Shown here in pieces: positions 49,742-63,673 of a stretch of DNA of 64,000 nucleotides. Below the pieces are notes generated by a model. It had not been told where the DNA came from, made no database searches, and was given only the letters and a program-made list of their open reading frames with translations. Within the stretch, counting starts at the first letter, position 1; each line of letters opens with the position of its first letter. A program made the position numbers and the translations under genes. This DNA is from Plastoroseomonas arctica. GTDB taxonomy: Bacteria; Pseudomonadota; Alphaproteobacteria; Acetobacterales; Acetobacteraceae. The stretch is taken from the NCBI RefSeq assembly GCF_018128965.1, contig NZ_JAAEDH010000001.1, forward strand, positions 310,001 through 374,000, in the 5' to 3' direction.

Positions 49742-50005
49742 ATGACATGGTTCAGCGGTATCGTCGTCTACATCCTGATCTGGTGGACGGCGCTGTTCGT
49801 GGTGCTGCCCATCGGCACGCGCCCTGATCCCGAGGGCGACGTGACCGCCGGCGGCTGGCGCGGAACGCCACGCGAGGCGCGAATCGGGCGGAAGCTGCTC
49901 GGAACGACGCTACTGGCCGCTGTTCTGTGGATCGGGGTCTGGGTCGTGATCGATAGCCACTGGATCAGCTTCCGCAGCGGCCCCTTCTCCTTGCCGGATC
50001 GGTGA
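49742..50005 (+). CDS. DUF1467 family small membrane protein
   Basis: 87 residues from ATG 49742 (MTWFSGIVVYILIWWTALF); ATG 49733 would add three residues. Two membrane helices flank a hydrophilic loop (GTRPDPEGDVTAGG). The opening with two adjacent tryptophans and VLPIGTR is the DUF1467 signature. Function unknown. It habitually lies between rnj and proS in alphaproteobacteria. Confidence 0.85.
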   Translation: MTWFSGIVVYILIWWTALFVVLPIGTRPDPEGDVTAGGWRGTPREARIGRKLLGTTLLAAVLWIGVWVVIDSHWISFRSGPFSLPDR

Positions 50006-50020
50006 GCCTGCAAAAAATTT

Positions 50021-50060
50021 AGGCGGCTAACAGGGTAAGGACCCCGCGCCGCCTTTGTTT
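50021..50060 (+). terminator. Terminator after the DUF1467 gene
   Basis: AGGCGGC (50021-50027) pairs with GCCGCCT (50048-50054), with a short inner GGG/CCC stem, followed by TTTGTTT. It starts 15 bases past the stop and probably ends the birA-rnj-DUF1467 transcript. An A-run just before it could give some function in the other direction. Confidence 0.6.
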
Positions 50061-50071
50061 CGGGCATCTTC

Positions 50072-50230
50072 GGTCTCAACGCCGAATTTTCGCCCTAGTT
50101 TGCCGTTGAGCCCGCTTCGAGCCCGGGCCAATCTTCATGACAGAGAGAGGTTGTTCCTCTTTCTGCCGTGTGACTGGCGTTTCCTCCCTAAACTTGGGCC
50201 GCGATCCTGACGGGTTGCGGCCCGTTTTTT
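50072..50230 (+). ncRNA. Candidate small RNA of about 160 nt upstream of proS
   Basis: Three successive hairpins separated by short open stretches: GG-CTCAACG with CGTTGAG-CC (50072-50113, one mismatch); CAGAGAGAGG with CCTCTTTCTG around TTGTT (50141-50165, one G-T pair); and a 12-bp intrinsic terminator (50196-50223) with T6. An unpaired TTTCCTCCCTAAAC at 50181-50194 could base-pair with ribosome binding sites (anti-GGAGG). The region has no believable protein. It does not fold like 6S, SRP or tmRNA. It could instead be a regulated leader of proS. The 5' end and promoter are guesses. Confidence 0.45.
50196..50230 (+). terminator. Strong intrinsic terminator in the proS upstream region
   Basis: GGGCCGCGATCC pairs over 12 positions (two G-T pairs) with GGGTTGCGGCCC, loop TGAC, followed by GTTTTTTG. 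It is the clearest rho-independent terminator of the window, points to plus-strand transcription, and lies 190 bases past the nearest upstream gene, which already has its own terminator. Confidence 0.85.
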
Positions 50231-50449
50231 GTTTAATGCGCCGCGCGCGCGGTGCCAAGCGGTTTTCGAAAAAAGCACGGTATATTGTGGACGAAAGTTA
50301 CGAGTGCGGGTCCGACACTGTAAGTATATTGCGTTGCACAAATTCGTCACCGGCTTGCCACCGGCGATCGCAGGTCAACCGCCCAGCGATTTCCGCCGCA
50401 CGGGAATCTGATCTATGGTCCGGCGCCTTCACTCGCCTCAAGGATCTTC
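50231..50449 (+). other. Non-coding region before proS
   Basis: About 220 bases, markedly richer in A+T than the surroundings (for example around 50262-50290 and 50320-50346, with TATATT and GTATATT). It should contain the proS promoter and leader. AAGGATCTTC immediately before the proS ATG is its ribosome binding site. Short open frames here lack plausible composition or start sites. Confidence 0.6.
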
Positions 50450-51760
50450 ATGCGCCTCTCCCGCGCCTTCCTGCCCACGCTCAAGGAAACCCCCGCTGAA
50501 GCGCAGATCGCCTCGCATCGCCTGATGCTGAGGGCGGGGATGGTGCGGCAGACCTCGGCCGGCATCTATGCCTGGCTGCCCGCCGGGCTGCGCGTGCTGC
50601 AGAAGGTGGGGCAGATCGTGCGCGAGGAACAGGACCGGGCCGGGGCGCAAGAAATCCTGATGCCGACTATCCAGAATGCCGATCTCTGGCGCCAGTCGGG
50701 CCGCTACGAGGATTACGGCGAGGAAATGCTGCGCATCAAGGACCGTAATCAGCGCGAGATGCTGTTTGGTCCGACCAATGAGGAAATGGTCACTGATCTC
50801 TTCAAGGATTACGCGAAGAGCTACCGCGACTTGCCGCGCAACCTCTACCACATTCAATGGAAATTCCGCGACGAACGGCGCCCTCGCTTCGGTGTCATGC
50901 GCGGCCGCGAATTCCTGATGAAGGATGCCTATTCCTTCGATGTGAACCCCGAGGCTGCGCAGCACAGCTACCGCCAGATGTTCCTGGCTTATCTGCGTAC
51001 CTTCGCCCGCATGGGCCTGAAGGCGATCCCGATGCGCGCCGATACAGGGCCCATCGGCGGCAATCTGTCTCACGAATTCATCATCCTGGCCGAAACCGGC
51101 GAATCCCAGGTCTTTGTGAGCCAGGACCTGCTCGACCTCGATCCACTCGCCGATACGCCGGATTTCGCCGGCGACCTGGCCCCGCATGTGGATCGCTGGA
51201 CGCAGCACTACGCCGCCACCGAGGAGATGCACGACGAGGCCGCCTGGTCCGCGCTGGCCGAGGGCAAGCGCGTATCCGCCCGCGGTATCGAGGTCGGCCA
51301 CATCTTCTATTTCGGCACCAAGTACAGCGCCTCGATGGGACTCACCGTCCAGGGCGCGGACGGCAAGCCGATCACGCCCGAGATGGGCAGCTACGGCATC
51401 GGCGTCTCGCGTCTGGTCGGCGCGATCATCGAGGCGAGCCATGACGAGGCCGGCATTATTTGGCCCGATGCGGTGGCCCCCTTCGCCGCCGCCATCCTGA
51501 ACCTCAAGGCCGGCGACGCAACCTGCGACGCGCTGTGCGAGCAACTCTACGCCGCCCTCGGCGCTGAGGCCGTCTATGACGACCGCGACGCCCGCCCTGG
51601 CCAGAAATTCGCCGAGGCCGATCTGTGCGGCTACCCCTGGCAGGCCATCATCGGGCCGCGCGGTGCCGCGAATGGCCGCGTCGAACTGAAGCGTCGCGCC
51701 ACCGGCGAGCGGCTGGACCTTTCCCGCGAAGACGCCATCGCGCGCATCAAGCGCGCCTGA
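50450..51760 (+). CDS. proS: Prolyl-tRNA synthetase, short alphaproteobacterial form
   Basis: 436 residues, lacking the roughly 180-residue editing insertion of the E. coli enzyme. Class II motif 1 is in the segment [23 protein letters not shown], motif 2 is [25 protein letters not shown], and motif 3 is [16 protein letters not shown]; the C-terminal anticodon domain follows from about 340. It charges tRNA-Pro. It overlaps lolC as TGATG. Confidence 0.97.
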
Positions 51761-63215: not shown

Positions 63216-63530
63216 TCAATCAACGCCGGCGGTCGCGACCTCGCGCGTCAGCGTCAGCCGGCTTTCGGAGGGCGGCGGGCTGGCGCTCGCGGCCGTCGGG
63301 ACGCCGTCGAACAGCTGGATCGGCGCGCCCGGCATCACCGTGCTGATCGCGTGCTTGTAGACGAGCTGCGTGTGCCCGTCGCGGCGCAGCAGCACGGAGA
63401 AATTGTCGAACCAAGTGATGATGCCCTGCAGCTTCACGCCATTGACAAGGAACACCGTTACCGACGTCTTGCTCTTGCGGACGTGGTTCAGGAAGACATC
63501 CTGCACGTTCTGCGACTTTTCGGCGGCCAT
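63216..63530 (-). CDS. hfq: RNA chaperone Hfq
   Basis: 104 residues from ATG 63530, with AAGGAC upstream. The Sm1 motif is [20 protein letters not shown] and the Sm2 motif is [12 protein letters not shown], with the YKHA residues of the uridine-binding pocket. The start reads [21 protein letters not shown], the usual proximal-face helix. A 30-residue, Ser/Pro/Ala-rich C-terminal tail follows. It pairs small RNAs with messages, and so would be relevant to the candidate RNA near 50.1 kb. Confidence 0.98.
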
Positions 63531-63673
63531 GGGCTCGTCCTTTTTTCTTGTCGGCTGCGCCTTATGGGCAGTCCGAACCGGCAGCACGGTGCCGCTCCTG
63601 CGACACCAAGGTCCCCTAGCATTGAATAGTGCGCGGGCCTTGTCCAGCATTTATGCTGCACCTGCGAAGAGAT

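What the first reader, a model, noticed from the sequence alone, without database searches (positions are those of the whole stretch)
50072..50230. Possible unrecognised small RNA with three hairpins and a strong terminator
Between a first terminator (50021-50060) and proS there is a 160-base stretch with three good stem-loops, ending in a 12-bp stem and T6, and with an exposed CCTCCCT that could pair with ribosome binding sites. Nothing protein-coding explains it. Exposed CCUCC motifs are known in several alphaproteobacterial sRNAs. hfq is present at 63.2 kb.
Basis: partly seen in the sequence, partly recalled or inferred. Interest (0 to 1): 0.6.

Follow-up and report, generated by a model that had tools for sequence, protein, structure and literature searches.

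The report
proS-linked αr8 (MmgR/SisA) small RNA
This is a real bacterial small RNA gene, but it belongs to a known family (αr8, named MmgR in Sinorhizobium and SisA-D in Caulobacter); what is added here is that Acetobacteraceae keep a distinct copy of it beside the proS gene, probably to restrain production of nutrient-uptake proteins.

Summary
The sRNA is real, but it is not unrecognised. Rfam scores window 50158-50238 as RF00519 (suhB/mmgR, the αr8 family) above the curated cut-off (43.1 against 41 bits). The family core UUUCCUCCCU lies at 50180-50189 and is predicted to be mostly unpaired.

Across 113 distinct relatives, conservation starts at a hairpin at 50141-50165. Upstream of it lies a conserved promoter (-35 at 50106-50111, -10 at 50130-50135). 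The likely transcript is about 50141-50230, roughly 90 nt. Its 5' hairpin and terminator covary: 19 of 22 pairs show double changes, and 0 of 500 shuffles match.

This copy sits between a DUF1467 gene and proS in most Acetobacteraceae relatives found. It is separate from the canonical FGase-linked copy in the same genome. It is not a proS leader, because some relatives keep it without proS nearby.

The best-supported mechanism is Hfq-assisted blocking of ribosome-binding sites. Genes with a fully complementary site are enriched for periplasmic solute-binding proteins (about 46/105 against 5/74). Expression and targets are untested.

The parts
50021..50060 (+). terminator-like hairpin of the upstream DUF1467 gene (not part of the sRNA)
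   Evidence: folds as a 7-bp outer stem with an inner stem, -18.8 kcal/mol, then TTTGTTT; a similar AGGCGG...CCGCCTT arrangement is seen in the two same-genus loci L033 and L034
50084..50111 (+). upstream promoter part: A/T tracts (GAATTTT, TTT 50099-50101) and -35 box TTGAGC at 50106-50111
   Evidence: A/T tracts around -63 and -41 and a TTG box at -35 are the conserved columns upstream of the hairpin in 113 relatives
50130..50135 (+). -10 box AATCTT, 18-nt spacer from the -35 box
   Evidence: consensus CAATCAT at -12..-6 relative to the hairpin start in 113 relatives
50141..50230 (+). sRNA gene (predicted about 90 nt transcript), proS-linked αr8/MmgR family
   Evidence: Rfam RF00519 43.1 bits; subfamily model R1 101.8 bits; covariation
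50141..50165 (+). stem-loop 1 CAGAGAGAGG-TTGTT-CCTCTTTCTG
   Evidence: 10 pairs, 8 with changes on both sides, 94.4% of cells paired; arm-swap test 271 against at most 247 in 2000 permutations
50165..50178 (+). small stem-loop 2 GCCG-UGUGAC-UGGC, nearly invariant sequence
   Evidence: predicted fold; CTGCCGTGTGACTGGCG nearly invariant in 68 aligned sequences
50180..50189 (+). single-stranded anti-Shine-Dalgarno core UUUCCUCCCU (seed)
   Evidence: exact 10-mer described for αR8 RNAs in PMC12559287; unpaired probability 0.82-1.0
50195..50230 (+). Rho-independent terminator, 12-13 bp stem then T6
   Evidence: 12 pairs tested, 11 with changes on both sides
49745..50005 (+). upstream neighbour, DUF1467 membrane protein
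   Evidence: PF07330 E=7.3e-22; conserved about 160 nt upstream of the RNA core in most relatives
50450..51760 (+). downstream neighbour proS (prolyl-tRNA synthetase)
   Evidence: Pfam tRNA-synt_2b and HGTP_anticodon; start 230-350 nt downstream of the core in most relatives
63216..63650 (-). hfq, presumed chaperone partner
   Evidence: Pfam Hfq E=1.3e-31

Best explanation
The stretch 50141-50230 encodes a trans-acting small RNA of the αr8 (MmgR/SisA, Rfam RF00519) family, transcribed from its own sigma-70-like promoter and ended by an intrinsic terminator. It is a second αr8 gene, paralogous to the FGase-linked copy in the same genome, with an Acetobacteraceae-specific 5' hairpin and linker. 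Inferred mechanism: with Hfq, the exposed UUUCCUCCCU loop pairs with GGGAGGAAA(C)-type ribosome-binding sites and blocks translation of a set of mRNAs. The predicted targets are mainly periplasmic solute-binding proteins of uptake systems (TctC, ABC and DctP types), so the RNA would act as a brake on nutrient uptake, as SisA does for TonB-dependent receptors in Caulobacter. Shown here: family membership, structure conservation, promoter conservation, synteny and complementary-site enrichment. Inferred: transcription, Hfq binding, repression and the physiological role.
For: RF00519 above gathering score. Exact αR8 10-mer, predicted open. Covariation in stem 1 and the terminator, 0/500 shuffles, slid controls far lower. 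Conserved promoter columns directly upstream. Model R1 matches 167 of 299 genomes of the order. Second copy next to FGase PF05013. SisA, the best-studied αR8 RNA, represses targets by seed pairing on Hfq (PMC12559287). Solute-binding proteins are enriched among genes preceded by GGGAGGAAAC: about 46/105 against 5/74 for control Shine-Dalgarno patterns, Fisher p = 1.5e-8. Own-genome candidates form -20.7 to -20.9 kcal/mol duplexes, against -10.4 for the proS leader.
Against: No expression data. The Rfam score is only 2 bits over the cut-off. The enrichment may reflect a Shine-Dalgarno preference of solute-binding-protein genes unrelated to this RNA; paralogous families inflate the counts; the fetched hits are not a random sample; and the two αr8 copies cannot be told apart by their shared core. 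Only three exactly complementary sites before an ATG were found in the own genome.
Confidence: 0.85

Rival explanations
1. The RNA is the 5' leader (attenuator or riboswitch) of proS rather than an independent sRNA.
For: It lies about 220 nt upstream of proS on the same strand, and the linkage is conserved in most relatives.
Against: It ends in a strong terminator; no antiterminator was seen, though none was searched for systematically. Relatives keep it without proS downstream: L105 has 7.3 kb after the RNA without proS, L036 and L048 have about 3 kb, and proS starts at +1.2 kb in several relatives including Acidocella and Acidiphilium, and at +5.0 kb in L091. The unlinked canonical αr8 copy has the same core. 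The core does not pair well with the proS start.
Confidence: 0.04
2. The conserved copy is an αr8 paralogue with a function other than repressing solute-binding proteins, for example general anti-Shine-Dalgarno repression of many mRNAs, PHB control as proposed for MmgR, or acting as or being a target of a sponge.
For: MmgR limits PHB accumulation in S. meliloti (PMC7143759). CrfA sponges SisA-D in Caulobacter. The core is a generic anti-Shine-Dalgarno sequence.
Against: The enrichment for solute-binding proteins is strong against two control Shine-Dalgarno patterns. Neither PHB genes nor a sponge were examined here.
Confidence: 0.35
3. A hairpin-rich intergenic region whose fold is incidental, with no functional RNA.
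For: GC-rich DNA folds readily; no transcript is shown.
Against: Compensatory changes in 19 of 22 pairs, invariant core over many genera, Rfam match.
Confidence: 0.01

Closest known systems
αr8 sRNA family / Rfam RF00519 suhB (MmgR of Sinorhizobium meliloti)
   Same: Core UUUCCUCCCU, upstream small hairpin, Rho-independent terminator, above the Rfam cut-off
   Different: Linked to DUF1467 and proS rather than to FGase; has a longer covarying 5' hairpin and the near-invariant linker CCGUGUGACUGGCG; function in PHB not tested
SisA-D of Caulobacter crescentus (αR8 siblings)
   Same: Multiple αR8 copies per genome, one canonical copy next to an FGase gene and others elsewhere; same 10-nt seed (PMC12559287)
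   Different: No CrfA-like sponge was looked for; predicted targets here are periplasmic solute-binding proteins rather than TonB-dependent receptors
AbcR1/AbcR2 (αr15)
   Same: Works-like resemblance: CU-rich anti-Shine-Dalgarno RNA aimed at transporter mRNAs (PMC7143759)
   Different: AbcR RNAs are 114-120 nt with two anti-Shine-Dalgarno motifs and lie in tandem beside lsrB; here there is one core in a 90-nt RNA, no second copy alongside, a different neighbourhood, and the only Rfam sRNA match is αr8

Membership tests
αr8 / RF00519 (MmgR, SisA) | Covariance-model score above the curated gathering score | tested here: met
   43.1 bits against 41, full-length 1-77
αr8 / RF00519 (MmgR, SisA) | Single-stranded 10-mer UUUCCUCCCU | tested here: met
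   exact at 50180-50189, unpaired probability 0.82-1.0
αr8 / RF00519 (MmgR, SisA) | Weak hairpin just upstream of the core and Rho-independent terminator at the 3' end | tested here: met
   GCCG/UGGC hairpin 50165-50178 and terminator 50195-50230; terminator covaries
αr8 / RF00519 (MmgR, SisA) | Typical (not obligatory) linkage to an N-formylglutamate amidohydrolase gene | tested here: not met
   This copy is between DUF1467 and proS; the genome's other αr8 copy (L032) is next to FGase PF05013. Published paralogues SisB-D also lie elsewhere, so this does not exclude membership
αr8 / RF00519 (MmgR, SisA) | Hfq association and repression by seed pairing | not testable with these tools
   hfq is present; needs experiment
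proS leader / attenuator | Always precedes proS and reads into it | tested here: not met
   terminated before proS; retained without adjacent proS in L105, L036, L048, L091
AbcR (αr15) | Two anti-Shine-Dalgarno motifs, tandem genes beside lsrB | tested here: not met
   single core; neighbours are DUF1467 and proS; no other Rfam sRNA family reached its gathering score in the window
SorY (RF02651) | Covariance-model score above the gathering score | tested here: not met
   14.5 bits against 111

The most novel reading that the evidence does not exclude
Acetobacteraceae carry a distinct, independently regulated αr8 subfamily (proS-linked, with its own conserved 5' hairpin, linker and A/T-tract promoter) that acts as a dedicated post-transcriptional brake on a large repertoire of periplasmic solute-binding proteins, a GcvB/AbcR-like regulon run by an αr8 RNA.
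Probability: 0.35. Interest if true: 0.5.

Novelty: new member of a known kind. Interest (0 to 1): 0.3.

Why it matters
It places a well-defined αr8 paralogue in Roseomonas-type Acetobacteraceae, where a paper search found no small-RNA study of these organisms, and gives exact boundaries, promoter and a testable target class. If the solute-binding-protein targeting holds, it would supply a direct regulon for a family whose founding member, MmgR, has no described direct mRNA target in the reviews read here, and would parallel SisA control of uptake receptors in Caulobacter.

Tried and rejected
Coding explanation: only overlapping ORFs without homology support, and the hairpin loop lengths vary by single bases among relatives. 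proS leader: rejected by synteny. SorY and mir-5881: below cut-off. Control Shine-Dalgarno pattern CAGGAGGCCC was dropped from the enrichment test because many of its ORFs looked spurious; it had few signal-peptide-like products (8/47), so dropping it does not create the contrast. A plain MAFFT alignment misregistered the 5' arm, so pairs were counted on the model-based alignment, which leans towards the structure; the alignment-free arm-swap test is independent of that. The phylum-wide pattern search was meant as an αr8-free control, but its fetched loci all came from Alphaproteobacteria, so it could not serve.

Full report
What is there. The window lies in an Acetobacteraceae genome of the Roseomonas/Plastoroseomonas group: the 227007-base contig of G002, a genome of the same genus, matches in length the Plastoroseomonas hellenica record behind L089. 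The region reads RNase J gene, DUF1467 gene, a small terminator, the element, proS.

It is a known RNA kind. A scan of all Rfam families gives one sRNA match in the whole window, RF00519 suhB (mmgR, αr8) at 50158-50238, 43.1 bits against a gathering score of 41. The αR8 traits published for Caulobacter SisA-D, a 10-nt single-stranded UUUCCUCCCU downstream of a weak hairpin and a Rho-independent terminator (PMC12559287), are all present. The same genome has a second αr8 copy (G000:C20:18687-18759, 49.5 bits) next to an N-formylglutamate amidohydrolase gene (PF05013 E=4.2e-77), which is the canonical αR8 location. The copy in the window is therefore a paralogue.

A conserved subfamily. In 127 loci the DUF1467 gene typically lies about 160 nt upstream of the core and proS 230-350 nt downstream; in Acidocella and Acidiphilium relatives the RNA follows RNase J directly and proS is mostly 1.2 kb away. 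A subfamily covariance model built from 68 sequences scores the window copy at 101.8 bits and matches 167 of 299 genomes of the order; the model was trained on sequences that include this one. Several members of the family, mostly with small genomes, have no αr8 match at all.

Structure. On the model-based alignment of 88 sequences, 19 of 22 pairs show changes on both sides, 92.2% of cells are paired, no shuffle of 500 reaches this, and slid controls fall to 47-60%. An alignment-free test for stem 1, pairing each 3' arm with its own or with another genome's 5' arm, gives 271 paired positions against a mean of 234.5 and a maximum of 247 in 2000 permutations of 30 distinct arms.

Boundaries. Aligning 113 distinct loci on the start of stem 1 shows conserved columns at about -63 and -41 (A/T tracts), -35 (TTG) and -12 to -6 (CAATCAT), with little conservation between. 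In the window these are TTGAGC at 50106-50111, an 18-nt spacer and AATCTT at 50130-50135, giving a predicted start near 50141. A-tract spacing of about 21 bp suggests UP-element-like sites; that is inference.

Not a proS leader. The RNA terminates before proS, the canonical copy is unlinked to proS, and some relatives keep the element without proS next to it (L105 with 7.3 kb of downstream sequence, L036, L048, L091 at +5.0 kb). The core pairs poorly with the proS start.

Likely mechanism. SisA represses many mRNAs through seed pairing on Hfq (PMC12559287), and hfq is present at 63.2-63.65 kb. I looked for the complementary ribosome-binding site GGGAGGAAAC within 0-7 nt of ATG. Among 105 distinct ORFs so preceded in Acetobacteraceae, about 46 are periplasmic solute-binding proteins (19 TctC, 7 Peripla_BP_6, 6 SBP_bac_5, 6 SBP_bac_8/1, 3 DctP, 3 NMT1, 2 SBP_bac_3; summed on the assumption that these sets do not overlap). 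Among 74 ORFs preceded by two control Shine-Dalgarno patterns (AAGGAGAAAC and AAAGGAGACG) about 5 are: 4 from the Pfam table and one, L455, judged from its sequence. Fisher p = 1.5e-8, or 3.5e-5 without TctC. Genomes with αr8 have more such sites than those without (3.2 against 0.9, p = 0.014), but genome size and lineage confound this. In the window's own genome the exact site precedes a TctC protein, a CMD-family protein and a protein with a DUF4440 domain and a signal-like N-terminus, each with a predicted duplex near -20.8 kcal/mol; the best shuffles of these leaders come close to or beyond that, so the energies alone are weak evidence. The steps shown are site complementarity and enrichment; transcription, Hfq binding and repression are inferred.

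Confidence. The stated confidence of 0.85 covers the family assignment, the boundaries and the anti-Shine-Dalgarno mode of action; the solute-binding-protein regulon as its main function is put at about 0.35 (the section on the most novel reading).

Verdict. A genuine small RNA gene and an ordinary member of a known, experimentally studied family, with a newly delineated proS-linked subfamily and a testable target class.

Noticed in passing
L032:2188-2260 (G000:C20:18687-18759): Second αr8 copy of the same genome, next to an FGase gene; in Acetobacteraceae the canonical copies have the different linker TTTCTTGGACG before the same core, so the two paralogues are easily told apart.
   Followed up: partly
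L113 and L124 (Roseomonas spp.), L038: The distance between RNase J and the RNA grows to about 1.8-2.7 kb in a few relatives, so insertions occur in this neighbourhood while the RNA-proS spacing stays short.
   Followed up: no
L099:2959-3057: A weak second match (40 bits) of the subfamily model about 1 kb from the main one in Paracraurococcus, a possible local duplication of the sRNA.
   Followed up: no
window 50021-50060 with relatives L033, L034: The upstream terminator-like hairpin AGGCGGC...GCCGCCT is conserved in same-genus genomes but not beyond in the same form.
   Followed up: partly
L472, L473, L480, L485, L490, L492, L494: In other Alphaproteobacteria too, GGGAGGAAAC ribosome-binding sites often precede what look like periplasmic binding proteins, hinting that a solute-binding-protein regulon may be general to αr8.
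   Followed up: partly
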